Assembly (NCBI RefSeq): GCF_052324685.1
Contig: NW_027506913.1
Span: 124,001 to 188,000, forward strand
Length of the DNA: 64,000 bases
Direction of reading: 5' to 3'
DNA from: Brachyhypopomus gauderio
Lineage: Eukaryota; Chordata; Actinopteri; Gymnotiformes; Hypopomidae
Shown here: piece after piece, positions 1 to 64,000 of the stretch
Layout: every line of letters starts with the position of its first letter
Numbering within the stretch: the first letter of the stretch is position 1
Made by a program: the position numbers and the translations under genes
Notes under the pieces: generated by a model
The model's database searches: none
The model's input: only the letters and a program-made list of their open reading frames with translations
Told to the model about the DNA's origin: nothing

Positions 1-131
1 CACAAGAACAAGCATGTAAAAATTCTGAAAACAATTCATGAAATATGCTGGAATTATAAAGACCGCAAGCATGTGATAGAGCTTGCATGGAGAAAAGACC
101 TGCAAGCTGGAATCAACACTAATGAATCAAA

Positions 132-203
132 AGGTTCCACTGAGAGTTGAACTCAGATTGCTGGATTCAGAGTCCAGAGTGCTAACCATTACACCATGGA
201 ACC
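132..203 (-). tRNA. tRNA-Gln(CUG), class B
   Basis: Decodes CAG. On the minus strand the cloverleaf is complete: acceptor GGTTCCA/TGGAACC with discriminator T73, D-stem GTGT/GCAC, anticodon stem CTGGA/TCCAG with loop CTCTGAA, variable loop CAAT, T-stem CTGAG/CTCAG with loop TTCAACT. The A box is TGGTGTAATGG. Class B differs from class A by a compensated pair (T50-A64 for C50-G64) and by A57 for G57. CCA is not encoded. A TTTT run begins at T73. Slot 1 of the left-edge unit. Confidence 0.95.
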
Positions 204-431
204 TAAAAGATAAGTTCTGATTCTTCTGTTTTGCTGGGTTCACAGACCAAGTTAAGCTCAAAGTGACTTGTCTTGAGAGGATGCAAGTTGCAACAACTAC
301 AGACAAGGACTTCCAGCAACAAGATGTTTAGTTGAGGTATTCGATTTGGTCAACTGAAAGACACTTTCTGTTTACACTAGTCTTCAACAACGAAAGCTGG
401 TACAACCCCTGATAAAGAGCATGTAGCAGAA

Positions 432-503
432 AGGTTCCACCGAGAGTCGAACTTGGATTGCTGAATTCAGAGTCCAGCGTGCTAACCATTACACCATGGA
501 ACC
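432..503 (-). tRNA. tRNA-Gln(CUG), class L1
   Basis: Class L has G26 for T26 and A51 for G51, which leaves an A51.C63 mismatch in the T-stem. L1 also has T40, making a G30.U40 wobble in the anticodon stem. The remaining stems and the CTG anticodon are intact. Whether it is charged and stable is unknown. Three T's only at the 3' end. Unit 0. Confidence 0.82.
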
Positions 504-730
504 TACGTTAGACACTTCTGAGTCTTGTTTTGCTGGGTTCACAGACCAAGTTAAGCTCAAATTGACTTGTCTTGAGAGGATGCAGGTTGCAACAACTACA
601 GACAAGGACTTCCAGCAACAAGATATTTAGTTGAGGTATTCGATTTGGTCAACTGAAAGACACTTTCTGTTTACAGTAGTCTTCAACAACGAAAGCTGGT
701 ACAATCCCAGATAAAGAGCATGTAGCAGAA

Positions 731-802
731 AGGTTCCACCGAGAGTCGAACTCGGATTGCTGGATTCAGAGTCCAGAGTGCTAACCATTACACCATGGAA
801 CC
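731..802 (-). tRNA. tRNA-Gln(CUG), class A
   Basis: The canonical CUG gene of the array. T-stem CCGAG/CTCGG and loop TTCGACT, all other parts as in class B, every stem fully paired apart from the usual T13.G22. The 3' flank on the minus strand is TTTCTGC, with no TTTT for the rest of the 227-bp spacer. Unit 0. Confidence 0.96.
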
Positions 803-1029
803 TACTTTAGACACTTCTGAGTCTTGTTTTGCTCGGTTCACAGACCAAGTTAAGCTCAAAGTGACTTGTCATGGGAGAATGCAGGTTGCAACAACTACAG
901 ACAAGGACTTCCAGCAACAAGATAATTAGTTGAGGTATTTGATTTGGTCAACTGAAAGACACTTTCTGTTTACAGTAGTCTTCAACAATGAAAGCTGGTA
1001 CAATCCCAGATAAAGAGCATGTAGCAGAA

Positions 1030-1101
1030 AGGTTCCACCGAGAGTCGAACTCGGATCACTGGATTCAAAGTCCAGAGTGCTGACCATTACACCATGGAAC
1101 C
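1030..1101 (-). tRNA. tRNA-Gln(UUG)
   Basis: Decodes CAA (and CAG by wobble). Anticodon loop CTTTGAA gives anticodon TTG. Besides base 34 it differs from class A by C20 in the D-loop and variable loop TGAT. All stems pair. It always occupies the last slot of a unit and its 5' flank (CTGTGG on the minus strand) is unlike that of the CUG genes. Unit 0. Confidence 0.96.
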
Positions 1102-1130
1102 CACAGCAAAAGTTGTTTCTAGCAAATGAG

Positions 1131-1170
1131 TTGCTGGATTCAGAGTCCAGAATGCTAACACCATGGAAAC
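1131..1170 (-). pseudogene. tRNA-Gln 5' fragment, CUG anticodon arm intact, no T-arm
   Basis: Read on the minus strand this matches tRNA-Gln positions 1-46. It has a 6-nt deletion in the D-arm, a G2-to-T change, C25-to-T, and then stops matching in the variable loop. The anticodon stem and the CTCTGAA loop are perfect. With the A box damaged and the B box absent it should not be transcribed by its own promoter. The same piece sits 101 bp after every unit boundary. In the copies ending near 8762, 12857 and 13923 the 5' end is still GGTTCC, the ancestral state, which confirms its origin. Confidence 0.85.
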
Positions 1171-1177
1171 AGCAAAT

Positions 1178-1241
1178 AGGTTTCCAACTTCTCTGCCGTT
1201 GATTTCAGAGTCTGTTGTGCTTACTACTGCATCACGCAACC
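1178..1241 (-). pseudogene. Strongly diverged tRNA-Gln relic
   Basis: Read on the minus strand it starts GGTTGCGTGATGCAGTAGTA and ends GGAAACCT. Its first 38 bases align without gaps to tRNA-Gln with 27 identities. The whole anticodon loop (CTCTGAA, anticodon CUG) and the D-stem 3' strand (GCAC) are kept, but the anticodon stem no longer pairs and the T-arm is shortened by about 8 nt. The plus-strand bases next to its 5' end (1242-1284) align with the flank of the class B gene (1569-1610), including the stretch CTGTTTTGCTG, so gene and flank decayed together. It recurs 148 bp after every boundary. The relation to tRNA-Gln is my alignment by eye. Confidence 0.65.
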
Positions 1242-1429
1242 AAAGAAATTAGCTTTTGTGAATACTGTTTTGCTGAACACATAGCAAAACATCCTGTCCT
1301 GAGACCCTAGCATATTTGGATTTAAATGACTTCACCAATTCTAGGATAATCAGAAAGCTGTTTGCCACAAGAACAAGCATGTAAAAATTCTGAAAACAAT
1401 TCATGAAATATGCTGGAATTATAAAGACC

Positions 1430-1473
1430 GCAAGCATGTGATAGAGCTTGCATGGAGAAAAGACCTGCAAGCT
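1430..1473. other. Two mutually exclusive hairpins beside the class B gene
   Basis: GCAAGC at 1430-1435 can pair with GCTTGC at 1446-1451 (6 bp, 10-nt loop). The overlapping AGCTTGCA at 1445-1452 can pair perfectly with TGCAAGCT at 1466-1473 (8 bp, 13-nt loop). The two helices share the middle strand, so only one can form. On the minus strand they lie about 24-67 nt past the 3' end of the class B gene, beyond its TTTT. The arrangement recurs in every unit; in units 21, 25, 28, 48 and 51 the base just after the last arm is changed (GCTGAAATC). No function is known to me. Confidence 0.55.
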
Positions 1474-1492
1474 GGAATCAACACTAATGAAT

Positions 1493-1497
1493 CAAAA
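1493..1497 (-). terminator. Pol III terminator of class B genes (first full copy)
   Basis: On the minus strand the discriminator base and the next three bases form TTTT followed by G. This is the minimal oligo-T signal for vertebrate RNA polymerase III. It recurs at the 3' end of every class B gene. The other classes end in TTT then C, so they lack this signal. Confidence 0.6.
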
Positions 1498-1568
1498 GGT
1501 TCCACTGAGAGTTGAACTCAGATTGCTGGATTCAGAGTCCAGAGTGCTAACCATTACACCATGGAACC
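1497..1568 (-). tRNA. tRNA-Gln(CUG), class B
   Basis: Unit 1, slot 1. Confidence 0.95.
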
Positions 1569-1575
1569 TAAAAGA
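1569..1575 (-). terminator. Oligo-T run just upstream of class B gene
   Basis: On the minus strand CTTTTAG lies directly before the 5' end of the class B gene. It is the first TTTT reached by a polymerase that reads through from the upstream class A, L, W or UUG genes, whose spacers contain no TTTT on that strand. It could act as a shared stop for them. It recurs in every unit. Confidence 0.4.
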
Positions 1576-1796
1576 TAAGTTCTGATTCTTCTGTTTTGCT
1601 GGGTTCACAGACCAAGTTAAGCTCAAAGTGACTTGTCTTGAGAGGATGCAAGTTGCAACAACTACAGACAAGGACTTCCAGCAACAAGATGTTTAGTTGA
1701 GGTATTCGATTTGGTCAACTGAAAGACACTTTCTGTTTACACTAGTCTTCAACAACGAAAGCTGTAACAACCCCTGATAAAGAGCATGTAGCAGAA

Positions 1797-1868
1797 AGGT
1801 TCCACCGAGAGTCGAACTCGGATTGCTGGATTCAGAGTCCAGAGTGCTAACCATTACACCATGGAACC
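1797..1868 (-). tRNA. tRNA-Gln(CUG), class A
   Basis: Unit 1, slot 2. The 3' spacer carries the variant GCTGTAACAACC for GCTGGTACAACC. Confidence 0.95.
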
Positions 1869-2095
1869 TACGTTAGACACTTCTGAGTCTTGTTTTGCTC
1901 GGTTCACAGACCAAGTTAAGCTCAAAGTGACTTGTCATGGGAGAATGCAGGTTGCAACAACTACAGACAAGGACTTCCAGCAACAAGATAATTAGTTGAG
2001 GTATTTGATTTGGTCAACTGAAAGACACTTTCTGTTTACAGTAGTCTTCAACAATGAAAGCTGGTACAATCCCAGATAAAGAGCATGTAACAGAA

Positions 2096-2167
2096 AGGTT
2101 CCACCGAGAGTCGAACTCGGATCACTGGATTCAAAGTCCAGAGTGCTGACCATTACACCATGGAACC
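2096..2167 (-). tRNA. tRNA-Gln(UUG)
   Basis: Unit 1, last slot. Confidence 0.95.
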
Positions 2168-2562
2168 CACAGCAAAAGTTGTTTCTAGCAAATGAGTTGC
2201 TGGATTCAGAGTCCAGAATGCTAACACCATGGAAACAGCAAATAGGTTTCCAACTTCTCTGCCGTTGATTTCAGAGTCTGTTGTGCTTACTACTGCATCA
2301 CGCAACCAAAGAAATTAGCTTTTGTGAATACTGTTTTGCTGAACACATAGCAAAACATCCTGTCCTGAGACCCTAGCATATTTGGATTTAAATGACTTCA
2401 CCAATTCTAGGATAATCAGAAAGCTGTTTGCCACAAGAACAAGCATGTAAAAATTCTGAAAACAATTCATGAAATATGCTGGAATTATAAAGACCGCAAG
2501 CATGTGATAGAGCTTGCATGGAGAAAAGACCTGCAAGCTGGAATCAACACTAATGAATCAAA

Positions 2563-2634
2563 AGGTTCCACTGAGAGTTGAACTCAGATTGCTGGATTCA
2601 GAGTCCAGAGTGCTAACCATTACACCATGGAACC
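2563..2634 (-). tRNA. tRNA-Gln(CUG), class B
   Basis: Unit 2, slot 1. Confidence 0.95.
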
Positions 2635-2862
2635 TAAAAGATAAGTTCTGATTCTTCTGTTTTGCTGGGTTCACAGACCAAGTTAAGCTCAAAGTGACTT
2701 GTCTTGAGAGGATGCACGTTGCAACAACTACAGACAAGGACTTCCAGCAACAAGATGTTTAGTTGAGGTATTCGATTTGGTCAACTGAAAGACACTTTCT
2801 GTTTACACTAGTCTTCAACAACGAAAGCTGGTACAACCCCTGATAAAGAGCATGCAGCAGAA

Positions 2863-2934
2863 AGGTTCCACCGAGAGTCGAACTTGGATTGCTGGATTCA
2901 GAGTCCAGCGTGCTAACCATTACACCATGGAACC
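2863..2934 (-). tRNA. tRNA-Gln(CUG), class L2
   Basis: L2 shares G26 and the A51.C63 mismatch with L1 but has a fully paired anticodon stem (TCCAG). The next base on the plus strand begins CTATGTTAG. An open frame of 69 codons on the plus strand runs antisense through this gene and is an artefact. Unit 2, slot 2. Confidence 0.84.
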
Positions 2935-3161
2935 TATGTTAGACACTTCTGAGTCTTGTTTTGCAGGGTTCACAGACCAAGTTAAGCTCAAAGTGACTTG
3001 TCTTGAGAGGATGCAGGTTGCAACAACTACAGACAAGGACTTCCAGCAACAAGATGTTTAGTTGAGGTATTTGATTTGGTCAACTGAAAGACACTTTCTG
3101 TTTACAGTAGTCTTCAACAATGAAAGCTGGTACAATCCCAGATAAAGAGTATGTAGTAGAA

Positions 3162-3233
3162 AGGTTCCACCGAGAGTCGAACTCGGATCACTGGATTCAA
3201 AGTCCAGAGTGCTGACCATTACACCATGGAACC
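3162..3233 (-). tRNA. tRNA-Gln(UUG)
   Basis: Unit 2, last slot. 3' flank on the minus strand is TTTCTACTACAT, a variant that always sits before Tyr-type gaps. Confidence 0.95.
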
Positions 3234-3628
3234 CACAGCAAAAGTTGTTTCTAGCAAATGAGTTTCTGGATTCAGAGTCCAGAATGCTAACACCATGGAA
3301 ACAGCAAATAGGTTTCCAACTTCTCTGTCGTTGATTTCAGAGTCTGTTGTGCTTACTACTGCATCACGCAACCAAAGAAATTAGCTTTTGTGAATACTGT
3401 TTTGCTGAACACATAGCAAAACATCCTGTCCTGAGACCCTAGCATATTTGGATTTAAATGACTTCACCAATTCTAGGATAATCAGAAAGCTGTTTGCCAC
3501 AAGAACAAGCATGTAAAAATTCTGAAAACAATTCATGAAATATGCTGGAATTATATAGACCGCAAGCATGTGATAGAGCTTGCATGGAGAAAAGACCTGC
3601 AAGCTGGAATCAACACTAATGAATCAAA

Positions 3629-3700
3629 AGGTTCCACTGAGAGTTGAACTCAGATTGCTGGATTCAGAGTCCAGAGTGCTAACCATTACACCATGGAACC
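3629..3700 (-). tRNA. tRNA-Gln(CUG), class B
   Basis: Unit 3, slot 1. Confidence 0.95.
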
Positions 3701-3928
3701 TAAAAGATAAGTTCTGATTCTTCTGTTTTGCTGGGTTCACAGACCAAGTTAAGCTCAAAGTGACTTGTCTTGAGAGGATGCAAGTTGCAACAACTACAGA
3801 CAAGGACTTCCAGCAACAAGATGTTTAGTTGAGGTATTCGATTTGGTCAACTGAAAGACACTTTCTGTTTACACTAGTCTTCAACAACGAAAGCTGGTAC
3901 AACCCCTGATAAAGAGCATGTAGCAGAA

Positions 3929-4000
3929 AGGTTCCACCGAGAGTCGAACTTGGATTGCTGAATTCAGAGTCCAGCGTGCTAACCATTACACCATGGAACC
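3929..4000 (-). tRNA. tRNA-Gln(CUG), class L1
   Basis: Unit 3, slot 2. Confidence 0.82.
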
Positions 4001-4227
4001 TACGTTAGACACTTCTGAGTCTTGTTTTGCTGGGTTCACAGACCAAGTTAAGCTCAAATTGACTTGTCTTGAGAGGATGCAGGTTGCAACAACTACAGAC
4101 AAGGACTTCCAGCAACAAGATATTTAGTTGAGGTATTCGATTTGGTCAACTGAAAGACACTTTCTGTTTACAGTAGTCTTCAACAACGAAAGCTGGTACA
4201 ATCCCAGATAAAGAGCATGTAGCAGAA

Positions 4228-4299
4228 AGGTTCCACCGAGAGTCGAACTCGGATTGCTGGATTCAGAGTCCAGAGTGCTAACCATTACACCATGGAACC
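4228..4299 (-). tRNA. tRNA-Gln(CUG), class A
   Basis: Unit 3, slot 3. Confidence 0.95.
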
Positions 4300-4526
4300 T
4301 ACTTTAGACACTTCTGAGTCTTGTTTTGCTCGGTTCACAGACCAAGTTAAGCTCAAAGTGACTTGTCATGGGAGAATGCAGGTTGCAACAACTACAGACA
4401 AGGACTTCCAGCAACAAGATAATTAGTTGAGGTATTTGATTTGGTCAACTGAAAGACACTTTCTGTTTACAGTAGTCTTCAACAATGAAAGCTGGTACAA
4501 TCCCAGATAAAGAGCATGTAGCAGAA

Positions 4527-4598
4527 AGGTTCCACCGAGAGTCGAACTCGGATCACTGGATTCAAAGTCCAGAGTGCTGACCATTACACCATGGAACC
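4527..4598 (-). tRNA. tRNA-Gln(UUG)
   Basis: Unit 3, last slot. Confidence 0.95.
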
Positions 4599-4993
4599 CA
4601 CAGCAAAAGTTGTTTCTAGCAAATGAGTTGCTGGATTCAGAGTCCAGAATGCTAACACCATGGAAACAGCAAATAGGTTTCCAACTTCTCTGCCGTTGAT
4701 TTCAGAGTCTGTTGTGCTTACTACTGCATCACGCAACCAAAGAAATTAGCTTTTGTGAATACTGTTTTGCTGAACACATAGCAAAACATCCTGTCCTGAG
4801 ACCCTAGCATATTTGGATTTAAATGACTTCACCAATTCTAGGATAATCAGAAAGCTGTTTGCCACAAGAACAAGCATGTAAAAATTCTGAAAACAATTCA
4901 TGAAATATGCTGGAATTATAAAGACCGCAAGCATGTGATAGAGCTTGCATGGAGAAAAGACCTGCAAGCTGGAATCAACACTAATGAATCAAA

Positions 4994-5065
4994 AGGTTCC
5001 ACTGAGAGTTGAACTCAGATTGCTGGATTCAGAGTCCAGAGTGCTAACCATTACACCATGGAACC
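4994..5065 (-). tRNA. tRNA-Gln(CUG), class B
   Basis: Unit 4, slot 1. Confidence 0.95.
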
Positions 5066-5293
5066 TAAAAGATAAGTTCTGATTCTTCTGTTTTGCTGGG
5101 TTCACAGACCAAGTTAAGCTCAAAGTGACTTGTCTTGAGAGGATGCAAGTTGCAACAACTACAGACAAGGACTTCCAGCAACAAGATGTTTAGTTGAGGT
5201 ATTCGATTTGGTCAACTGAAAGACACTTTCTGTTTACACTAGTCTTCAACAACGAAAGCTGTAACAACCCCTGATAAAGAGCATGTAGCAGAA

Positions 5294-5365
5294 AGGTTCC
5301 ACCGAGAGTCGAACTCGGATTGCTGGATTCAGAGTCCAGAGTGCTAACCATTACACCATGGAACC
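5294..5365 (-). tRNA. tRNA-Gln(CUG), class A
   Basis: Unit 4, slot 2; GCTGTAACAACC spacer variant as in unit 1. Confidence 0.95.
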
Positions 5366-5592
5366 TACGTTAGACACTTCTGAGTCTTGTTTTGCTCGGT
5401 TCACAGACCAAGTTAAGCTCAAAGTGACTTGTCATGGGAGAATGCAGGTTGCAACAACTACAGACAAGGACTTCCAGCAACAAGATAATTAGTTGAGGTA
5501 TTTGATTTGGTCAACTGAAAGACACTTTCTGTTTACAGTAGTCTTCAACAATGAAAGCTGGTACAATCCCAGATAAAGAGCATGTAACAGAA

Positions 5593-5664
5593 AGGTTCCA
5601 CCGAGAGTCGAACTCGGATCACTGGATTCAAAGTCCAGAGTGCTGACCATTACACCATGGAACC
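5593..5664 (-). tRNA. tRNA-Gln(UUG)
   Basis: Unit 4, last slot. Confidence 0.95.
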
Positions 5665-6059
5665 CACAGCAAAAGTTGTTTCTAGCAAATGAGTTGCTGG
5701 ATTCAGAGTCCAGAATGCTAACACCATGGAAACAGCAAATAGGTTTCCAACTTCTCTGCCGTTGATTTCAGAGTCTGTTGTGCTTACTACTGCATCACGC
5801 AACCAAAGAAATTAGCTTTTGTGAATACTGTTTTGCTGAACACATAGCAAAACATCCTGTCCTGAGACCCTAGCATATTTGGATTTAAATGACTTCACCA
5901 ATTCTAGGATAATCAGAAAGCTGTTTGCCACAAGAACAAGCATGTAAAAATTCTGAAAACAATTCATGAAATATGCTGGAATTATAAAGACCGCAAGCAT
6001 GTGATAGAGCTTGCATGGAGAAAAGACCTGCAAGCTGGAATCAACACTAATGAATCAAA

Positions 6060-13483: not shown

Positions 13484-13555
13484 AAGTTCCACCGAGAGTC
13501 GAACTTGGATTGCTGGATTCAGAGTCCAGCGTGCTAACCATTACACCATGGAACC
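13484..13555 (-). tRNA. tRNA-Gln(CUG), class L2, acceptor variant
   Basis: Unit 10, slot 2. C72 is T, so the first acceptor pair is G1.U72 in addition to the A51.C63 mismatch. The same change makes a TTTT run at the 3' end (T72 onward) that could stop Pol III before the acceptor is complete. Likely impaired. Confidence 0.7.
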
Positions 13556-13782
13556 TACGTTAGACACTTCTGAGTCTTGTTTTGCTTGGTTCACAGACCA
13601 AGTTAAGCTCAAAGTGACTTGTCATGGGAGAATGCATGTTGCAACAACTACAGACAAGGACTTCCAGCAACAAGATAATTAGTTGAGGTATTTGATTTGG
13701 TCAACTGAAAGACACTTTCTGTTTACAGTAGTCTTCAACAATGAAAGCTGGTACAATCCCAGATAAAGAGCATGTAGCAGAA

Positions 13783-13854
13783 AGGTTCCACCAAGAGTCG
13801 AACTCGGATCACAGGATTCAAAGTCCAGAGTGCTGACCATTACACCATGGAACC
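13783..13854 (-). tRNA. tRNA-Gln(UUG), weakened variant
   Basis: Unit 10, last slot. T42 gives a U28.U42 mismatch in the anticodon stem and T63 gives a G51.U63 wobble in the T-stem. The most altered UUG gene in the window and possibly a pseudogene. Confidence 0.7.
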
Positions 13855-14249
13855 CACGGCAAAAGTTGTTTCTAGCAAATGAGTTGCTGGATTCAGAGTC
13901 CAGAATGCTAACACCATGGAACCAGCAAATAGGTTTCCAACTTCTCTGCCGTTGATTTCAGAGTCTGTTGTGCTTACTACTGCATCACGCAACCAAAGAA
14001 ATTAGCTTTTGTGAATACTGTTTTGCTGAACACATAGCAAAACATCCTGTCCTGAGACCCTAGCATATTTGGATTTAAATGACTTCACCAATTCTAGGAT
14101 AATCAGAAAGCTGTTTGCCACAAGAACAAGCATGTAAAAATTCTGAAAACAATTCATGAAATATGCTGGAATTATAAAGACCGCAAGCATGTGATAGAGC
14201 TTGCATGGAGAAAAGACCTGCAAGCTGGAATCAACACTAATGAATCAAA

Positions 14250-14549: not shown

Positions 14550-14621
14550 AGGTTCCACCGAGAGTCGAACTCGGATCACTGGATTCAAAGTCCAGAGTGC
14601 TGACCATTACACCATGGAACC
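14550..14621 (-). tRNA. tRNA-Gln(UUG)
   Basis: Unit 11, last slot, directly next to the class B gene; the unit has no middle CUG gene. Confidence 0.95.
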
Positions 14622-23148: not shown

Positions 23149-23376
23149 TAAAAGATAAGTTCTGATTCTTCTGTTTTGCTGGGTTCACAGACCAAGTTAA
23201 GCTCAAAGTGACTTGTCTTGAGAGGATGCAAGTTGCAACAACTACAGACAAGGACTTCCAGCAACAAGATGTTTAGTTGAGGTATTCGATTTGGTCAACT
23301 GAAAGACACTTTCTGTTTACACTAGTCTTCAACAACGAAAGCTGGTACAACCCCTGATAAAGAGCATGTAGCAGAA

Positions 23377-23448
23377 AGGTTCCACCGAGAGTCGAACTTG
23401 GATTGCTGGATTCAGAGTCCAGCGTGCTAACCATTACACCATGGAACC
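23377..23448 (-). tRNA. tRNA-Gln(CUG), class L2
   Basis: Unit 19, slot 2. Confidence 0.84.
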
Positions 23449-23675
23449 TACGTTAGACACTTCTGAGTCTTGTTTTGCTGGGTTCACAGACCAAGTTAAG
23501 CTCAAAGTGACTTGTCTTGAGAGGATGCAGGTTGCAACAACTACAGACAAGGACTTCCAGCAACAAGATATTTAGTTGAGATATTCGATTTGGTCAACTG
23601 AAAGACACTTTCTGTTTACAGTAGTCTTCAACAACGAAAGCTGGTACAATCCCAGATAAAGAGCATGTAGCAGAA

Positions 23676-23747
23676 AGGTTCCACCGAGAGTCGAACTCAG
23701 ATTGCTGGATTCAGAGTCCAGAGTGCTAACCATTACACCATGGAACC
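23676..23747 (-). tRNA. tRNA-Gln(CUG), class W
   Basis: Unit 19, slot 3. Confidence 0.92.
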
Positions 23748-23974
23748 TACTTTAGACACTTCTGAGTCTTGTTTTGCTCGGTTCACAGACCAAGTTAAGC
23801 TCAAAGTGACTTGTCATGGGAGAATGCAGGTTGCAACAACTACAGACAAGGACTTCCAGCAACAAGATAATTAGTTGAGGTATTTGATTTGGTCAACTGA
23901 AAGACACTTTCTGTTTACAGTAGTCTTCAACAATGAAAGCTGGTACAATCCCAGATAAAGAGCATGTAGCAGAA

Positions 23975-24046
23975 AGGTTCCACCGAGAGTCGAACTCGGA
24001 TCACTGGATTCAAAGTCCAGAGTGCTGACCATTACACCATGGAACC
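23975..24046 (-). tRNA. tRNA-Gln(UUG)
   Basis: Unit 19, last slot. Confidence 0.95.
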
Positions 24047-24441
24047 CACAGCAAAAGTTGTTTCTAGCAAATGAGTTGCTGGATTCAGAGTCCAGAATGC
24101 TAACACCATGGAAACAGCAAATAGGTTTCCAACTTCTCTGCCGTTGATTTCAGAGTCTGTTGTGCTTACTACTGCATCACGCAACCAAAGAAATTAGCTT
24201 TTGTGAATACTGTTTTGCTGAACACATAGCAAAACATCCTGTCCTGAGACCCTAGCATATTTGGATTTAAATGACTTCACCAATTCTAGGATAATCAGAA
24301 AGCTGTTTGCCACAAGAACAAGCATGTAAAAATTCTGAAAACAATTCATGAAATATGCTGGAATTATAAAGACCGCAAGCATGTGATAGAGCTTGCATGG
24401 AGAAAAGACCTGCAAGCTGGAATCAACACTAATGAATCAAA

Positions 24442-24513
24442 AGGTTCCACTGAGAGTTGAACTCAGATTGCTGGATTCAGAGTCCAGAGTGCTAACCATT
24501 ACACCATGGAACC
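24442..24513 (-). tRNA. tRNA-Gln(CUG), class B
   Basis: Unit 20, slot 1. Confidence 0.95.
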
Positions 24514-24741
24514 TAAAAGATAAGTTCTGATTCTTCTGTTTTGCTGGGTTCACAGACCAAGTTAAGCTCAAAGTGACTTGTCTTGAGAGGATGCAAGTTG
24601 CAACAACTACAGACAAGGACTTCCAGCAACAAGATATTTAGTTGAGGTATTCGATTTGGTCAACTGAAAGACACTTTCTGTTTACACTAGTCTTCAACAA
24701 CGAAAGCTGGTACAACCCCTGATAAAGAGCATGTAGCAGAA

Positions 24742-24813
24742 AGGTTCCACCGAGAGTCGAACTCGGATTGCTGGATTCAGAGTCCAGAGTGCTAACCATT
24801 ACACCATGGAACC
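24742..24813 (-). tRNA. tRNA-Gln(CUG), class A
   Basis: Unit 20, slot 2. Confidence 0.95.
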
Positions 24814-25040
24814 TACGTTAGACACTTCTGAGTCTTGTTTTGCTCGGTTCACAGACCAAGTTAAGCTCAAAGTGACTTGTCATGGGAGAATGCAGGTTGC
24901 AACAACTACAGACAAGGACTTCCAGCAACAAGATAATTAGTTGAGGTATTTGATTTGGTCAACTGAAAGACACTTTCTGTTTACAGTAGTCTTCAACAAT
25001 GAAAGCTGGTACAATCCCAGATAAAGAGCATGTAGCAGAA

Positions 25041-25112
25041 AGGTTCCACCGAGAGTCGAACTCGGATCACTGGATTCAAAGTCCAGAGTGCTGACCATTA
25101 CACCATGGAACC
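25041..25112 (-). tRNA. tRNA-Gln(UUG)
   Basis: Unit 20, last slot. Confidence 0.95.
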
Positions 25113-25507
25113 CACAGCAAAAGTTGTTTCTAGCAAATGAGTTGCTGGATTCAGAGTCCAGAATGCTAACACCATGGAAACAGCAAATAGGTTTCCAACT
25201 TCTCTGCCGTTGATTTCAGAGTCTGTTGTGCTTACTACTGCATCACGCAACCAAAGAAATTAGCTTTTGTGAATACTGTTTTGCTGAACACATAGCAAAA
25301 CATCCTGTCCTGAGACCCTAGCATATTTGGATTTAAATGACTTCACCAATTCTAGGATAATCAGAAAGCTGTTTGCCACAAGAACAAGCATGTAAAAATT
25401 CTGAAAACAATTCATGAAATATGCTGGAATTATAAAGACCGCAAGCATGTGATAGAGCTTGCATGGAGAAAAGACCTGCAAGCTGAAATCAACACTAATG
25501 AATCAAA

Positions 25508-25579
25508 AGGTTCCACTGAGAGTTGAACTCAGATTGCTGGATTCAGAGTCCAGAGTGCTAACCATTACACCATGGAACC
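25508..25579 (-). tRNA. tRNA-Gln(CUG), class B
   Basis: Unit 21, slot 1; GCTGAAATC variant in the preceding gap. Confidence 0.95.
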
Positions 25580-25807
25580 TAAAAGATAAGTTCTGATTCT
25601 TCTGTTTTGCTGGGTTCACAGACCAAGTTAAGCTCAAAGTGACTTGTCTTGAGAGGATGCAAGTTGCAACAACTACAGACAAGGACTTCCAGCAACAAGA
25701 TGTTTAGTTGAGGTATTCGATTTGGTCAACTGAAAGACACTTTCTGTTTACACTAGTCTTCAACAACGAAAGCTGGTACAACCCCTGATAAAGAGCATGC
25801 AGCAGAA

Positions 25808-25879
25808 AGGTTCCACCGAGAGTCGAACTTGGATTGCTGGATTCAGAGTCCAGCGTGCTAACCATTACACCATGGAACC
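25808..25879 (-). tRNA. tRNA-Gln(CUG), class L2
   Basis: Unit 21, slot 2. Confidence 0.84.
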
Positions 25880-26873: not shown

Positions 26874-26945
26874 AGGTTCCACCGAGAGTCGAACTCGGAT
26901 TGCTGGATTCAGAGTCCAGAGTGCTAACCATTACACCATGGAACC
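26874..26945 (-). tRNA. tRNA-Gln(CUG) class A body in the UUG slot (recombinant)
   Basis: Unit 22, last slot. All gene-internal markers are class A (CTG anticodon, T20, variable loop CAAT), but the plus-strand right flank is CCACAGCAAAAG, which elsewhere belongs only to UUG genes. The switch must lie in the identical bases between D-loop position 20 and the 5' end, so a crossover or conversion inside the gene replaced the UUG allele. This unit has no UUG gene. Confidence 0.95.
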
Positions 26946-27412: not shown

Positions 27413-27640
27413 TAAAAGATATGTTCTGATTCTTCTGTTTTGCTGGGTTCACAGACCAAGTTAGGCTCAAAGTGACTTGTCTTGAGAGGATGCAAGTTGC
27501 AACAACTACAGACAAGGACTTCCAGCAACAAGATATTTAGTTGAGGTATTTGATTTGGTCAACTGAAAGACACTTTCTGTTTACACTAGTCTTCAACAAC
27601 GAAAGCTGGTACAACCCCTGATAAAGAGCATGTAGCAGAA

Positions 27641-27712
27641 AGGTTCCACCGAGAGTCGAACTTGGATTGCTGGATTCAGAGTCCAGCGTGCTAACCATTA
27701 CACCATGGAACC
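27641..27712 (-). tRNA. tRNA-Gln(CUG), class L2
   Basis: Unit 23, slot 2. Confidence 0.84.
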
Positions 27713-27939
27713 TACGTTAGACACTTCTGAGTCTTGTTTTGCTGGGTTCACAGACCAAGTTAAGCTCAAAGTGACTTGTCTTGAGAGGATGCAGGTTGCA
27801 ACAACTACAGACAAGGACTTCCAGCAACAAGATATTTAGTTGAGATATTCGATTTGGTCAACTGAAAGACACTTTCTGTTTACAGTAGTCTTCAACAACG
27901 AAAGCTGGTACAATCCCAGATAAAGAGCATGTAGCAGAA

Positions 27940-28011
27940 AGGTTCCACCGAGAGTCGAACTCAGATTGCTGGATTCAGAGTCCAGAGTGCTAACCATTAC
28001 ACCATGGAACC
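27940..28011 (-). tRNA. tRNA-Gln(CUG), class W
   Basis: Unit 23, slot 3. Confidence 0.92.
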
Positions 28012-28238
28012 TACTTTAGACACTTCTGAGTCTTGTTTTGCTCGGTTCACAGACCAAGTTAAGCTCAAAGTGACTTGTCATGGGAGAATGCAGGTTGCAA
28101 CAACTACAGACAAGGACTTCCAGCAACAAGATAATTAGTTGAGGTATTTGATTTGGTCAACTGAAAGACACTTTCTGTTTACAGTAGTCTTCAACAATGA
28201 AAGCTGGTACAATCCCAGATAAAGAGCATGTAGCAGAA

Positions 28239-28310
28239 AGGTTCCACCGAGAGTCGAACTCGGATCACTGGATTCAAAGTCCAGAGTGCTGACCATTACA
28301 CCATGGAACC
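28239..28310 (-). tRNA. tRNA-Gln(UUG)
   Basis: Unit 23, last slot. Confidence 0.95.
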
Positions 28311-28705
28311 CACAGCAAAAGTTGTTTCTAGCAAATGAGTTGCTGGATTCAGAGTCCAGAATGCTAACACCATGGAAACAGCAAATAGGTTTCCAACTTC
28401 TCTGCCGTTGATTTCAGAGTCTGTTGTGCTTACTACTGCATCACGCAACCAAAGAAATTAGCTTTTGTGAATACTGTTTTGCTGAACACATAGCAAAACA
28501 TCCTGTCCTGAGACCCTAGCATATTTGGATTTAAATGACTTCACCAATTCTAGGATAATCAGAAAGCTGTTTGCCACAAGAACAAGCATGTAAAAATTCT
28601 GAAAACAATTCATGAAATATGCTGGAATTATAAAGACCGCAAGCATGTGATAGAGCTTGCATGGAGAAAAGACCTGCAAGCTGGAATCAACACTAATGAA
28701 TCAAA

Positions 28706-28777
28706 AGGTTCCACTGAGAGTTGAACTCAGATTGCTGGATTCAGAGTCCAGAGTGCTAACCATTACACCATGGAACC
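28706..28777 (-). tRNA. tRNA-Gln(CUG), class B
   Basis: Unit 24, slot 1. Confidence 0.95.
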
Positions 28778-29005
28778 TAAAAGATAAGTTCTGATTCTTC
28801 TGTTTTGCTGGGTTCACAGACCAAGTTAAGCTCAAAGTGACTTGTCTTGAGAGGATGCAAGTTGCAACAACTACAGACAAGGACTTCCAGCAACAAGATA
28901 TTTAGTTGAGGTATTCGATTTGGTCAACTGAAAGACACTTTCTGTTTACACTAGTCTTCAACAACGAAAGCTGGTACAACCCCTGATAAAGAGCATGTAG
29001 CAGAA

Positions 29006-29077
29006 AGGTTCCACCGAGAGTCGAACTCGGATTGCTGGATTCAGAGTCCAGAGTGCTAACCATTACACCATGGAACC
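29006..29077 (-). tRNA. tRNA-Gln(CUG), class A
   Basis: Unit 24, slot 2. Confidence 0.95.
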
Positions 29078-29304
29078 TACGTTAGACACTTCTGAGTCTT
29101 GTTTTGCTCGGTTCACAGACCAAGTTAAGCTCAAAGTGACTTGTCATGGGAGAATGCAGGTTGCAACAACTACAGACAAGGACTTCCAGCAACAAGATAA
29201 TTAGTTGAGGTATTTGATTTGGTCAACTGAAAGACACTTTCTGTTTACAGTAGTCTTCAACAATGAAAGCTGGTACAATCCCAGATAAAGAGCATGTAGC
29301 AGAA

Positions 29305-29376
29305 AGGTTCCACCGAGAGTCGAACTCGGATCACTGGATTCAAAGTCCAGAGTGCTGACCATTACACCATGGAACC
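29305..29376 (-). tRNA. tRNA-Gln(UUG)
   Basis: Unit 24, last slot. Confidence 0.95.
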
Positions 29377-29771
29377 CACAGCAAAAGTTGTTTCTAGCAA
29401 ATGAGTTGCTGGATTCAGAGTCCAGAATGCTAACACCATGGAAACAGCAAATAGGTTTCCAACTTCTCTGCCGTTGATTTCAGAGTCTGTTGTGCTTACT
29501 ACTGCATCACGCAACCAAAGAAATTAGCTTTTGTGAATACTGTTTTGCTGAACACATAGCAAAACATCCTGTCCTGAGACCCTAGCATATTTGGATTTAA
29601 ATGACTTCACCAATTCTAGGATAATCAGAAAGCTGTTTGCCACAAGAACAAGCATGTAAAAATTCTGAAAACAATTCATGAAATATGCTGGAATTATAAA
29701 GACCGCAAGCATGTGATAGAGCTTGCATGGAGAAAAGACCTGCAAGCTGAAATCAACACTAATGAATCAAA

Positions 29772-29843
29772 AGGTTCCACTGAGAGTTGAACTCAGATTG
29801 CTGGATTCAGAGTCCAGAGTGCTAACCATTACACCATGGAACC
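29772..29843 (-). tRNA. tRNA-Gln(CUG), class B
   Basis: Unit 25, slot 1; GCTGAAATC variant in the gap. Confidence 0.95.
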
Positions 29844-30071
29844 TAAAAGATAAGTTCTGATTCTTCTGTTTTGCTGGGTTCACAGACCAAGTTAAGCTCA
29901 AAGTGACTTGTCTTGAGAGGATGCAAGTTGCAACAACTACAGACAAGGACTTCCAGCAACAAGATGTTTAGTTGAGGTATTCGATTTGGTCAACTGAAAG
30001 ACACTTTCTGTTTACACTAGTCTTCAACAACGAAAGCTGGTACAACCCCTGATAAAGAGCATGCAGCAGAA

Positions 30072-30143
30072 AGGTTCCACCGAGAGTCGAACTTGGATTG
30101 CTGGATTCAGAGTCCAGCGTGCTAACCATTACACCATGGAACC
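30072..30143 (-). tRNA. tRNA-Gln(CUG), class L2
   Basis: Unit 25, slot 2. Confidence 0.84.
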
Positions 30144-30370
30144 TATGTTAGACACTTCTGAGTCTTGTTTTGCTGGGTTCACAGACCAAGTTAAGCTCAA
30201 AGTGACTTGTCTTGAGAGGATGCAGGTTGCAACAACTACAGACAAGGACTTCCAGCAACAAGATGTTTAGTTGAGGTATTTGATTTGGTCAACTGAAAGA
30301 CACTTTCTGTTTACAGTAGTCTTCAACAATGAAAGCTGGTACAATCCCAGATAAAGAGTATGTAGTAGAA

Positions 30371-30442
30371 AGGTTCCACCGAGAGTCGAACTCGGATCAC
30401 TGGATTCAAAGTCCAGAGTGCTGACCATTACACCATGGAACC
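30371..30442 (-). tRNA. tRNA-Gln(UUG)
   Basis: Unit 25, last slot. Confidence 0.95.
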
Positions 30443-30837
30443 CACAGCAAATGTTGTTTCTAGCAAATGAGTTGCTGGATTCAGAGTCCAGAATGCTAAC
30501 ACCATGGAAACAGCAAATAGGTTTCCAACTTCTCTGCCGTTGATTTCAGAGTCTGTTGTGCTTACTACTGCATCACGCAACCAAAGAAATTAGCTTTTGT
30601 GAATACTGTTTTGCTGAACACATAGCAAAACATCCTGTCCTGAGACCCTAGCGTATTTGGATTTAAATGACTTCACCAATTCTAGGATAATCAGAAAGCT
30701 GTTTGCCACAAGAACAAGCATGTAAAAATTCTGAAAACAATTCATGAAATATGCTGGAATTATATAGACCGCAAGCATGTGATAGAGCTTGCATGGAGAA
30801 AAGACCTGCAAGCTGGAATCAACACTAATGAATCAAA

Positions 30838-30909
30838 AGGTTCCACTGAGAGTTGAACTCAGATTGCTGGATTCAGAGTCCAGAGTGCTAACCATTACAC
30901 CATGGAACC
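30838..30909 (-). tRNA. tRNA-Gln(CUG), class B
   Basis: Unit 26 (767 bp), slot 1. Confidence 0.95.
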
Positions 30910-31137
30910 TAAAAGATAAGTTCTGATTCTTCTGTTTTGCTGGGTTCACAGACCAAGTTAGGCTCAAAGTGACTTGTCTTGAGAGGATGCAAGTTGCAAC
31001 AACTACAGACAAGGACTTCCAGCAACAAGATATTTAGTTGAGGTATTCGATTTGGTCAACTGAAAGACACTTTCTGTTTACAGTAGTCTTCAACAACGAA
31101 AGCTGGTACAATCCCAGATAAAGAGCATGTAGCAGAA

Positions 31138-31209
31138 AGGTTCCACCGAGAGTCGAACTCGGATTGCTGGATTCAGAGTCCAGAGTGCTAACCATTACAC
31201 CATGGAACC
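31138..31209 (-). tRNA. tRNA-Gln(CUG) class A body in the UUG slot (recombinant)
   Basis: Unit 26, last slot. Same junction as the gene at 26874, inherited with the 4264-bp block. No UUG gene in this unit. Confidence 0.95.
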
Positions 31210-31604
31210 CACAGCAAAAGTTGTTTCTAGCAAATGAGTTGCTGGATTCAGAGTCCAGAATGCTAACACCATGGAAACAGCAAATAGGTTTCCAACTTCT
31301 CTGCCGTTGATTTCAGAGTCTGTTGTGCTTACTACTGCATCACGCAACCAAAGAAATTAGCTTTTGTGAATACTGTTTTGCTGAACACATAGCAAAACAT
31401 CCTGTCCTGAGACCCTAGCATATTTGGATTTAAATGACTTCACCAATTCTAGGATAATCAGAAAGCTGTTTGCCACAAGAACAAGCATGTAAAAATTCTG
31501 AAAACAATTCATGAAATATGCTGGAATTATAAAGACCGCAAGCATGTGATAGAGCTTGCATGGAGAAAAGACCTGCAAGCTGGAATCAACACTAATGAAT
31601 CAAA

Positions 31605-31676
31605 AGGTTCCACTGAGAGTTGAACTCAGATTGCTGGATTCAGAGTCCAGAGTGCTAACCATTACACCATGGAACC
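31605..31676 (-). tRNA. tRNA-Gln(CUG), class B
   Basis: Unit 27, slot 1; AGATATGTTC flank variant. Confidence 0.95.
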
Positions 31677-31904
31677 TAAAAGATATGTTCTGATTCTTCT
31701 GTTTTGCTGGGTTCACAGACCAAGTTAGGCTCAAAGTGACTTGTCTTGAGAGGATGCAAGTTGCAACAACTACAGACAAGGACTTCCAGCAACAAGATAT
31801 TTAGTTGAGGTATTTGATTTGGTCAACTGAAAGACACTTTCTGTTTACAGTAGTCTTCAACAACGAAAGCTGGTACAATCCCAGATAAAGAGCATGTAGC
31901 AGAA

Positions 31905-56382: not shown

Positions 56383-56454
56383 AGGTTCCACTGAGAGTTG
56401 AACTCAGATTGCTGGATTCAAAGTCCAGAGTGCTAACCATTACACCATGGAACC
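56383..56454 (-). tRNA. tRNA-Gln(UUG) on a class B body (anticodon switch)
   Basis: Unit 48, slot 1. Every class B marker is present (T50-A64, A57, T20, variable loop CAAT, TTTT end), but base 34 is T, so the anticodon is TTG. A single change is the simplest explanation; short-tract conversion from a UUG gene is the alternative. Gln identity is kept. It is the only UUG gene with a TTTT terminator at its end. Confidence 0.94.
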
Positions 56455-61616: not shown

Positions 61617-62011
61617 CACAGCAAAAGTTGTTTCTAGCAAATGAGTTGCTGGATTCAGAGTCCAGAATGCTAACACCATGGAAACAGCAAATAGGTTTCC
61701 AACTTCTCTGCCGTTGATTTCAGAGTCTGTTGTGCTTACTACTGCATCACGCAACCAAAGAAATTAGCTTTTGTGAATACTGTTTTGCTGAACACATAGC
61801 AAAACATCCTGTCCTGAGACCCTAGCATATTTGGATTTAAATGACTTCACCAATTCTAGGATAATCAGAAAGCTGTTTGCCACAAGAACAAGCATGTAAA
61901 AATTCTGAAAACAATTCATGAAATATGCTGGAATTATAAAGACCGCAAGCATGTGATAGAGCTTGCATGGAGAAAAGACCTGCAAGCTGGAATCAACACT
62001 AATGAATCAAA

Positions 62012-62083
62012 AGGTTCCACTGAGAGTTGAACTCAGATTGCTGGATTCAGAGTCCAGAGTGCTAACCATTACACCATGGAACC
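62012..62083 (-). tRNA. tRNA-Gln(CUG), class B
   Basis: Unit 53, slot 1. Confidence 0.95.
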
Positions 62084-62311
62084 TAAAAGATAAGTTCTGA
62101 TTCTTCTGTTTTGCTGGGTTCACAGACCAAGTTAGGCTCAAAGTGACTTGTCTTGAGAGGATGCAAGTTGCAACAACTACAGACAAGGACTTCCAGCAAC
62201 AAGATATTTAGTTGAGGTATTCGATTTGGTCAACTGAAAGACACTTTCTGTTTACAGTAGTCTTCAACAACGAAAGCTGGTACAATCCCAGATAAAGAGC
62301 ATGTAGCAGAA

Positions 62312-62383
62312 AGGTTCCACCGAGAGTCGAACTCGGATTGCTGGATTCAGAGTCCAGAGTGCTAACCATTACACCATGGAACC
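62312..62383 (-). tRNA. tRNA-Gln(CUG), class A
   Basis: Unit 53, slot 2. Confidence 0.95.
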
Positions 62384-62610
62384 TACTTTAGACACTTCTG
62401 AGTCTTGTTTTGCTCGGTTCACAGACCAAGTTAAGCTCAAAGTGACTTGTCATGGGAGAATGCAGGTTGCAACAACTACAGACAAGGACTTCCAGCAACA
62501 AGATAATTAGTTGAGGTATTTGATTTGGTCAACTGAAAGACACTTTCTGTTTACAGTAGTCTTCAACAATGAAAGCTGGTACAATCCCAGATAAAGAGCA
62601 TGTAGCAGAA

Positions 62611-62682
62611 AGGTTCCACCGAGAGTCGAACTCGGATCACTGGATTCAAAGTCCAGAGTGCTGACCATTACACCATGGAACC
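62611..62682 (-). tRNA. tRNA-Gln(UUG)
   Basis: Unit 53, last slot. Confidence 0.95.
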
Positions 62683-63077
62683 CACAGCAAAAGTTGTTTC
62701 TAGCAAATGAGTTGCTGGATTCAGAGTCCAGAATGCTAACACCATGGAAACAGCAAATAGGTTTCCAACTTCTCTGCCGTTGATTTCAGAGTCTGTTGTG
62801 CTTACTACTGCATCACGCAACCAAAGAAATTAGCTTTTGTGAATACTGTTTTGCTGAACACATAGCAAAACATCCTGTCCTGAGACCCTAGCATATTTGG
62901 ATTTAAATGACTTCACCAATTCTAGGATAATCAGAAAGCTGTTTGCCACAAGAACAAGCATGTAAAAATTCTGAAAACAATTCATGAAATATGCTGGAAT
63001 TATAAAGACCGCAAGCATGTGATAGAGCTTGCATGGAGAAAAGACCTGCAAGCTGGAATCAACACTAATGAATCAAA

Positions 63078-63149
63078 AGGTTCCACTGAGAGTTGAACTC
63101 AGATTGCTGGATTCAGAGTCCAGAGTGCTAACCATTACACCATGGAACC
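63078..63149 (-). tRNA. tRNA-Gln(CUG), class B
   Basis: Unit 54, slot 1; AGATATGTTC flank variant. Confidence 0.95.
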
Positions 63150-63377
63150 TAAAAGATATGTTCTGATTCTTCTGTTTTGCTGGGTTCACAGACCAAGTTA
63201 GGCTCAAAGTGACTTGTCTTGAGAGGATGCAAGTTGCAACAACTACAGACAAGGACTTCCAGCAACAAGATATTTAGTTGAGGTATTTGATTTGGTCAAC
63301 TGAAAGACACTTTCTGTTTACAGTAGTCTTCAACAACGAAAGCTGGTACAATCCCAGATAAAGAGCATGTAGCAGAA

Positions 63378-63449
63378 AGGTTCCACCGAGAGTCGAACTT
63401 GGATTGCTGGATTCAGAGTCCAGCGTGCTAACCATTACACCATGGAACC
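63378..63449 (-). tRNA. tRNA-Gln(CUG), class L2
   Basis: Unit 54, slot 2. Confidence 0.84.
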
Positions 63450-63676
63450 TACGTTAGACACTTCTGAGTCTTGTTTTGCTGGGTTCACAGACCAAGTTAA
63501 GCTCAAAGTGACTTGTCTTGAGAGGATGCAGGTTGCAACAACTACAGACAAGGACTTCCAGCAACAAGATATTTAGTTGAGATATTCGATTTGGTCAACT
63601 GAAAGACACTTTCTGTTTACAGTAGTCTTCAACAACGAAAGCTGGTACAATCCCAGATAAAGAGCATGTAGCAGAA

Positions 63677-63748
63677 AGGTTCCACCGAGAGTCGAACTCA
63701 GATTGCTGGATTCAGAGTCCAGAGTGCTAACCATTACACCATGGAACC
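63677..63748 (-). tRNA. tRNA-Gln(CUG), class W
   Basis: Unit 54, slot 3. Confidence 0.92.
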
Positions 63749-63975
63749 TACTTTAGACACTTCTGAGTCTTGTTTTGCTCGGTTCACAGACCAAGTTAAG
63801 CTCAAAGTGACTTGTCATGGGAGAATGCAGGTTGCAACAACTACAGACAAGGACTTCCAGCAACAAGATAATTAGTTGAGGTATTTGATTTGGTCAACTG
63901 AAAGACACTTTCTGTTTACAGTAGTCTTCAACAATGAAAGCTGGTACAATCCCAGATAAAGAGCATGTAGCAGAA

Positions 63976-64000
63976 AGGTTCCACCGAGAGTCGAACTCGG
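63976..64000 (-). tRNA. tRNA-Gln, partial (cut by right edge)
   Basis: Only the acceptor 3' strand and the T-arm (CCGAG, loop TTCGACT, CTCGG) are visible. The anticodon is outside the window; by position after a W gene it should be UUG. Confidence 0.85.

What the first reader, a model, noticed from the sequence alone, without database searches (positions are those of the whole stretch)
1..64000. A 64-kb block made only of about 184 tRNA-Gln genes on one strand
Every gene decodes glutamine and all point the same way, at one gene per roughly 350 bp. Large tRNA arrays are known in fish and frogs, but a single-isotype array of this purity and length, mixing both Gln anticodons at a regular ratio, is striking. 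It may serve supply of tRNA-Gln, tRNA fragments, or a chromatin role through dense TFIIIC binding. Which of these applies, if any, is inference.
Basis: partly seen in the sequence, partly recalled or inferred. Interest (0 to 1): 0.75.

Follow-up and report, generated by a model that had tools for sequence, protein, structure and literature searches.

The report
Homogenised block of glutamine tRNA genes
The whole 64,000-base window is one repeating block of 183 intact glutamine tRNA genes that appears to have grown recently by copying itself like satellite DNA, and its sequence suggests that most copies sit in methylated DNA rather than serving as a simple booster of tRNA supply.

Summary
ARAGORN finds 183 complete tRNA genes, all tRNA-Gln on the minus strand (130 CTG, 53 TTG); Rfam also gives 183 matches; a 184th gene is cut by the right edge. 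The array is a higher-order repeat. Read along the genes: TTG gene, zero or more CTG genes, penultimate CTG gene, last CTG gene, then a 395-bp spacer holding a decayed tRNA-Gln relic. Of 53 complete units, 34 are 1,066 bp, 14 are 1,365, 3 are 767 and 2 are 1,963. Exact repeats reach 4,298 bp, and three hybrid genes mark crossovers in or beside gene bodies, so intactness is partly recent copying. Class differences still avoid structural damage (1 of 10 net, about 5 expected). Spacer CpG is depleted (observed/expected 0.196), and the last gene lost three CpGs, implying long-term germline methylation. Terminators are weak. Large tRNA clusters in zebrafish and Arabidopsis are reported methylated and mostly silent. 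Best reading: a satellite-like, mostly silent tRNA-Gln array, a new member of a known kind. An excess of unique variants in genes points the other way. Host and expression are unknown.

The parts
1..64000 (-). Tandem tRNA-Gln array filling the window; no array end seen at either edge
   Evidence: 183 complete genes, spacing 299/300/467 bp only; 184th gene cut at 63976-64000
1102..2167 (-). Example of the commonest repeat unit (1,066 bp): TTG gene, penultimate CTG gene, last CTG gene, then 395-bp spacer
   Evidence: 34 of 53 complete units have this length; sequence
2096..2167 (-). tRNA-Gln-TTG gene of the example unit (class T)
   Evidence: Rfam 68.8 bits; the commonest TTG body, 50 copies in the window
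1797..1868 (-). tRNA-Gln-CTG gene, penultimate in its unit (class P)
   Evidence: Rfam 65.6 bits; class haplotypes
1497..1568 (-). tRNA-Gln-CTG gene, last in its unit (class L); the class L body has none of the three CpGs of class M
   Evidence: Rfam 65.5 bits; class L differs from class M at nt 49, 56 and 63, each a CpG transition
1102..1496 (-). 395-bp spacer after the last gene; no homology to the 227-bp spacers above shuffles
   Evidence: class consensus compared: local score 27 against shuffle maximum 37
1131..1170 (-). Decayed, truncated tRNA-Gln relic inside that spacer
   Evidence: alignment score 64 against shuffle maximum 42.5, computed on another copy of the unit; coordinates read
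1183..1241 (-). Possible second tRNA-Gln relic
   Evidence: score 39.5, within the shuffle range (maximum 42.5): inconclusive (another copy); coordinates read
26874..26945 (-). Hybrid gene: TTG-type 5' flank with CTG-type body and penultimate-type spacer; a copy at 31138-31209 is identical, 300 bp of upstream DNA included, so probably one event
14550..14621 (-). Hybrid gene: TTG-type 5' flank and body followed by penultimate-type spacer
56383..56454 (-). Class L gene with a single anticodon change CTG to TTG at window 56421
27552..31849 (-). 4,298-bp stretch identical to the stretch 4,264 bp further left (23288-27585)

Best explanation
This is a satellite-like array of nuclear tRNA-Gln genes, probably from an animal with a heavily methylated genome. 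A short block with several gene classes became a higher-order repeat and spread by unequal crossing-over and gene conversion; the gene bodies, the sequence shared by all junctions, serve as crossover substrate (supported by unit-length variants, hybrid genes and long exact repeats). The founding genes were functional tRNA genes (supported by the constraint on class differences). Most present copies are probably methylated and transcribed little or not at all, so the array is a by-product of repeat turnover rather than an adaptation for glutamine decoding; a minority of copies may still be used (inferred, not shown).
For: Higher-order units of 1,066 (34), 1,365 (14), 767 (3) and 1,963 bp (2) of 53. 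Exact repeats of 4,298 and 3,987 bp at separations of 4.3 and 26.9 kb. Three hybrid genes, at least two events, joining TTG-type 5' flank to penultimate-type spacer. Near-identical gene bodies beside unrelated spacers. Net structural damage in 1 of 10 shared gene-body changes against about 5 expected, P 0.005-0.0075; the script itself counts 2 of 10, P 0.030-0.041, because it scores the compensated pair as damage (pairing of class L). Methylation: spacer CpG observed/expected 0.196 with TpG 1.48 and CpA 1.44; class L differs from class M in the gene by three changes, all CpG transitions. Terminators: 0 of 182 genes have TTTT in the first 15 nt after the 72-nt body. Precedent: near-complete CpG methylation of large zebrafish tRNA clusters (PMC11574265, passages); Arabidopsis tRNA clusters described as silenced (PMC10701932, passages).
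Against: All 183 genes keep A and B boxes and Gln anticodons. Unique variants are denser in gene bodies than in spacers: 9 in 13,104 bp against 7 in 50,441 bp, P = 0.0019, after setting aside four sites of one hybrid gene; raw 13 against 7; 6 against 5, P = 0.014, if a cluster of five at 13485-13858 is also left out. Such an excess is what transcription-associated mutation could give, hence a hint of germline transcription. CpG depletion may be general in this genome; I had no background to compare. T and M classes differ as much in the gene (4 of 72) as in the spacer (9 of 227), so constraint is not visible there. Even in Arabidopsis one boundary gene of a silenced cluster is expressed at a low level (PMC10701932). 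No expression or methylation data.
Confidence: 0.6

Rival explanations
1. Germline or oocyte-specific tRNA-Gln source: the array is silent in soma but transcribed in oocytes or early embryos, like the maternal-type 5S and snRNA genes on zebrafish chromosome 4.
For: All 183 internal promoters intact by pattern; excess of unique variants in gene bodies, all nine at C or A of the RNA-like strand (P = 0.0008, test chosen after seeing them). Authors of PMC11075544 hypothesise maternal use of the zebrafish chromosome 4 tRNA genes (passages).
Against: CpG loss in class L genes argues for germline methylation. In zebrafish eggs and embryos tRNA level did not follow gene copy number (PMC11574265, passages). 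The counts are small; two of the nine variants are in one gene, and five of all 16 unique variants lie within 374 bp.
Confidence: 0.22
2. Somatic supply: selection for more tRNA-Gln, for instance for a glutamine-rich product, enlarged the array and most copies are active.
For: Intact genes of one isotype with both anticodons.
Against: Intactness is partly explained by recent copying; weak terminators; methylation signature. No host, proteome or codon data.
Confidence: 0.06
3. Chromatin or boundary element: dense TFIIIC sites act as insulator, replication barrier or centromere-like satellite, irrespective of tRNA output.
For: One A-box and B-box pair per about 350 bp over 64 kb. A human tRNA tandem repeat at 1q23.3 binds CTCF and is implicated as a boundary (PMC4041453, abstract and passages).
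Against: TFIIIC is reported to prefer unmethylated DNA (PMC11346459, passages).
Confidence: 0.08
4. Assembly artefact: the array length or order is wrong.
For: Tandem repeats of this kind are hard to assemble; nothing here validates the copy number. Five of 16 unique variants cluster at 13485-13858, which could mark a poorly resolved stretch.
Against: Units differ: 20 distinct of 34 units of 1,066 bp; the longest exact repeat is 4,298 bp, short for a duplicated-contig error. No N in the window.
Confidence: 0.03
5. tRNA-Gln-derived SINE family mistaken for genes.
For: A tRNA-Gln-TTG-like SINE inflated tRNA counts in Schistosoma mansoni (PMC2770079, passages).
Against: Copies here are head-to-tail on one strand with three fixed spacings; 183 of 183 have both boxes. 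Dispersed copies elsewhere could not be looked for.
Confidence: 0.01

Closest known systems
Zebrafish chromosome 4 and other large zebrafish tRNA clusters (PMC11574265, PMC11075544; passages)
   Same: Very many tRNA genes in large clusters; reported near-completely CpG-methylated and mostly inaccessible, which fits the CpG signature here
   Different: Adjacent pairs in zebrafish are reported mostly heterogeneous in isotype (PMC2888827, section 6); this window has one isotype only
Arabidopsis tRNA-Tyr/Ser, tRNA-Pro and tRNA-Cys clusters (PMC10701932, passages)
   Same: Clusters of one or two isotypes; a multi-gene tandem unit for Ser/Tyr (27 units over almost 40 kb); clusters described as silenced, though not completely for Cys
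   Different: Fewer genes; the largest mixes two isotypes; plant
Hydractinia and Nematostella ncRNA tandem arrays (PMC11067881, passages)
   Same: Evenly spaced arrays of tens to hundreds of near-identical genes, tRNA genes among them, with highly similar spacers
   Different: Arrays cover tRNAs for all 20 amino acids plus rRNA and snRNA genes; the passages I read say nothing of higher-order repeats or hybrid genes
Entamoeba tRNA gene arrays (PMC2652664, abstract and passages)
   Same: Tandem tRNA units, thought to be held alike by concerted evolution; at least one array named for a single tRNA (Arg-TCT)
   Different: Units hold up to 5 genes, some with 5S RNA; short tandem repeats between genes in some species; almost all tRNA genes of E. 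histolytica lie in such arrays
Human tRNA VNTR at 1q23.3 (PMC4041453, abstract and passages)
   Same: Tandem tRNA repeat, variable in copy number
   Different: 7.3-kb GC-rich unit with five tRNA genes of several isotypes on both strands

Membership tests
Nuclear tRNA-Gln gene | Cloverleaf with Gln anticodon | tested here: met
   183 of 183 by ARAGORN; Rfam tRNA model, 183 matches above threshold, 150 shown. Mismatched pairs in 30 of 183 bodies
Nuclear tRNA-Gln gene | Internal A and B boxes | tested here: met
   183 of 183 match both consensus patterns, which I recalled
Nuclear tRNA-Gln gene | Pol III terminator (four or more T) just downstream | tested here: not met
   0 of 182 within 15 nt of the flank; 54 of 182 have a run of four if the last base of the 72-nt body is counted. 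Only 50-60% of human tRNA genes have a T-stretch there (PMC11346459, passage), so this is common but not defining and does not exclude function
Nuclear tRNA-Gln gene | Transcribed and charged | not testable with these tools
   no expression data
Tandem tRNA gene array | Head-to-tail units with near-identical spacers | tested here: met
   three spacings only; mean pairwise difference 0.4-1.9% within each of the four main unit classes
Higher-order repeat satellite | Diverged monomers ordered in a unit that is itself repeated with higher identity | tested here: met
   four monomer classes; 53 complete units, mean difference 1.1% among 34 units of 1,066 bp
Methylated silent tRNA cluster (zebrafish, Arabidopsis type) | CpG methylation of the array | tested here: inconclusive
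   indirect only: spacer CpG observed/expected 0.196 and CpG transitions in genes
Methylated silent tRNA cluster (zebrafish, Arabidopsis type) | Lack of Pol III output | not testable with these tools
   no occupancy or RNA data
tRNA-derived SINE | Dispersed retroposed copies | tested here: inconclusive
   in the window the copies are head-to-tail on one strand; no genome was available to look for dispersed copies

The most novel reading that the evidence does not exclude
The repeat unit works as a Pol III multi-gene transcription unit used in germ cells: the TTG and following CTG genes lack a T4 stop and would be read through to the TTTT that lies just before the last gene, while the last gene ends on its own run of four T. 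The array would then be a dedicated germline source of tRNA-Gln or of linked tRNA precursors, with the excess of unique gene-body variants as the scar of transcription.
Probability: 0.06. Interest if true: 0.7.

Novelty: new member of a known kind. Interest (0 to 1): 0.36.

Why it matters
It is a clear case of a tRNA gene family behaving as a higher-order-repeat satellite, with crossovers in or beside the gene bodies and a synonymous anticodon switch caught as a single change. It warns against reading tRNA copy number as tRNA supply. If instead the copies are used in germ cells, array-specific variants make that directly testable by tRNA-seq.

Tried and rejected
Organism and outside copies: no whole genome is held for this window. 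A 28-base spacer pattern gave no exact match in viral contigs or genome contigs. A tRNA-body pattern gave none in viral contigs. A 1,066-bp stretch gave no match in plasmids or phages. These collections are viral, plasmid or prokaryotic, so absence says nothing about animals. The host stays unidentified; the view that it is an animal rests on my recall that the gene resembles animal tRNA-Gln, and the view that it is heavily methylated rests.

Purifying selection: I first expected rare variants to be depleted in gene bodies. They are enriched (8 against 7, P = 0.005, pooled; 13 against 7 by class, P = 2e-5; 9 against 7, P = 0.0019, after setting aside four sites of one hybrid gene; 6 against 5, P = 0.014, after also leaving out a cluster of five). 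Frequent variants are depleted (4 of 288 gene columns against 43 of 1,077 spacer columns, P = 0.029). T and M differ to a similar degree in gene and spacer. I kept all of these.

Shared origin of the 395-bp and 227-bp spacers: not supported, score within shuffles. A second relic in the 395-bp spacer: not above shuffles. Plastid-ycf2 hits on the plus strand of 1-6000 are below that family's threshold and mirror the tRNA genes. Protein coding: no ORF of 100 codons.

Literature: ten searches ran. I saw titles and abstract openings only, and three listings were capped (40 of 56 papers, 10 of 31, 15 of 93). No entry that I saw names a nuclear array made of tRNA-Gln genes alone; only open-licence PMC papers are held. 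PMC10071708 mentions tRNA arrays near a catfish chromosome end without isotype (passages). PMC12652284 gives plant identical tandem tRNA clusters of up to 26 genes and names Gln among isotypes with tandem pairs of different anticodon (passages). PMC11700998 passages gave plant clusters only. The paper on silenced Arabidopsis clusters is not held, so I cite it through PMC10701932.
Full report
OBSERVATION. ARAGORN, with the bacterial code and again with the standard code, finds 183 tRNA genes, all tRNA-Gln, all on the minus strand, 130 with anticodon CTG and 53 with TTG. Rfam cmscan gives 183 matches at gathering threshold; the 150 shown are all the tRNA family, 33 were not shown. A 184th gene is cut by the right edge (25 nt). 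Starts are spaced by 299 (73), 300 (55) or 467 bp (54) and nothing else. GC is flat along the window, 0.409-0.420 in 2-kb steps, there is no N, and no ORF reaches 100 codons.

ANATOMY. Read along the genes (minus strand), the usual unit is: a TTG gene (class T) after a 467 step; zero or more CTG genes at 299 bp (class M); a penultimate CTG gene followed by a 300 step (class P); and a last CTG gene followed by a 467 step (class L). Among 53 complete units, 34 are 1,066 bp (33 T-C-C, one T-C-T), 14 are 1,365 bp, 3 are 767 bp (two C-C, one T-C) and 2 are 1,963 bp. The 34 units of 1,066 bp differ by 1.1% on average and comprise 20 distinct sequences. The 227-bp spacers of T and M are alike, and that of P is alike except near its 3' end; the 395-bp spacer after L shows no similarity to that of M beyond shuffles (score 27, shuffle maximum 37). 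The 395-bp spacer holds a truncated tRNA-Gln relic (score 64 against a shuffle maximum of 42.5) and perhaps a second, nearly full-length one (39.5, inconclusive).

TURNOVER. Exact repeats reach 4,298 bp at a separation of 4,264 bp and 3,987 bp at 26,910 bp; a block of 7,104 bp with at most five mismatches lies 5,928 bp from its copy. Three genes join TTG-type 5' flank to penultimate-type spacer, two with a CTG body and one with a TTG body. The two with a CTG body are identical with 300 bp of upstream DNA, so probably copies of one event. In them the flank is TTG-type up to the gene and the body is CTG-type at nt 20, the first site that tells the classes apart, which places that crossover at the start of the gene body. 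One class L gene carries a single anticodon change, CTG to TTG, at window 56421: a synonymous anticodon switch in one step. These are the marks expected of unequal crossing-over and conversion, so the intactness of 183 genes is partly the result of recent copying.

CONSTRAINT. Ten gene-body sites carry changes shared by several copies. They leave one net structural defect, A50 opposite C62, in 28 of 183 genes (one of them A-A). The expected damaging fraction for random single changes is 0.52-0.54, giving P = 0.005-0.0075 for 1 of 10; the script's own count is 2 of 10, because it scores the compensated 49-63 pair as damage, with P = 0.030-0.041. The founding genes were therefore probably functional. 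For nine unique variants the count is 3 of 9, not different from random (P = 0.18-0.21). Against constraint, T and M differ at 4 of 72 gene sites and 9 of 227 spacer sites.

METHYLATION. In spacers CpG observed/expected is 0.196, with TpG 1.48 and CpA 1.44; in genes CpG is 0.459. Class L differs from class M in the gene by three changes, at nt 49, 56 and 63, each turning a CpG into TpG or CpA; 49 and 63 pair with each other, so the stem is kept. One of the two changes of the P consensus is also a CpG transition; that consensus is a bare majority, 28 of 55. Deamination of methylated CpG is the established cause of such patterns (recalled). I infer long germline methylation. I had no host background to compare with.

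A RESULT AGAINST THE SILENT READING. Unique variants are denser in gene bodies: 13 against 7 in spacers by class (P = 2e-5), or 9 in 13,104 bp against 7 in 50,441 bp (P = 0.0019) once four sites of one hybrid gene are set aside. Five of these 16, three in genes and two in spacers, lie within 374 bp at 13485-13858 (about 5e-5 by random placement); without them it is 6 against 5 (P = 0.014). All nine fall on C or A of the RNA-like strand (P = 0.0008), a test I chose after seeing them, and two of the nine are in one gene. Transcription-associated mutation at tRNA genes is described for their immediate flanks, with strong selection in bodies (PMC8113476, passage), so the fit is loose. This hints at germline transcription, but the counts are small.

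TERMINATION. None of 182 genes has TTTT in the first 15 nt after the 72-nt body; the 54 genes before a 467 step have a run of four if the last base of the body is counted, with a further TTTT at +36; the 55 before a 300 step meet TTTT only at +224, just before the next gene; the 73 before a 299 step meet none before the next gene. Only 50-60% of human tRNA genes have a T-stretch within 15 bp (PMC11346459, passage), so this is weak evidence.

COMPARISON. Large zebrafish tRNA clusters are reported as near-completely CpG-methylated, with copy number not predicting tRNA level (PMC11574265, passages). Arabidopsis clusters are described as silenced, with one boundary gene still weakly expressed (PMC10701932, passages). 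Hydractinia has evenly spaced arrays of tens to hundreds of ncRNA genes, tRNA genes included (PMC11067881, passages). Clusters of fifty or more tRNA genes occur in Nematostella and teleosts (PMC2888827, section 6). This window is thus a new member of a known kind; single isotype, 183 genes and the higher-order structure make it a striking one. In my ten literature searches (three listings capped) I saw no nuclear array of tRNA-Gln alone, but they cover open-licence papers only.

VERDICT. Structure is shown, and turnover follows closely from it. Past function is supported. Present silence is inferred; the whole reading stands at about 0.6, with germline use the main rival. The checking call (54) weakened one result against my reading and raised the longest exact repeat; I left the odds as they were. 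The host is unidentified.

Noticed in passing
14550-14621, 26874-26945, 31138-31209: Hybrid genes joining the flank of one class to the body or spacer of another; the last two are identical with 300 bp upstream and probably one event.
   Followed up: yes
56383-56454: A last-class CTG gene with a single change to TTG: a one-step synonymous anticodon switch.
   Followed up: partly
class L genes, e.g. 1497-1568: Two CpG transitions at nt 49 and 63 replace a C-G pair by a T-A pair; a T-G intermediate is seen in 10 of 22 class M genes.
   Followed up: partly
28 of 183 genes, by the list: T-stem mismatch at 50-62 (A-C, one copy A-A), found in penultimate genes, perhaps early decay.
   Followed up: no
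13485-13858: Five of 16 unique variants in the window fall within 374 bp; a mutation cluster, a divergent converted copy or a poorly resolved stretch.
   Followed up: partly
gene bodies across the window: Unique variants are about five times denser in genes than in spacers and all nine fall on C or A of the RNA-like strand.
   Followed up: partly
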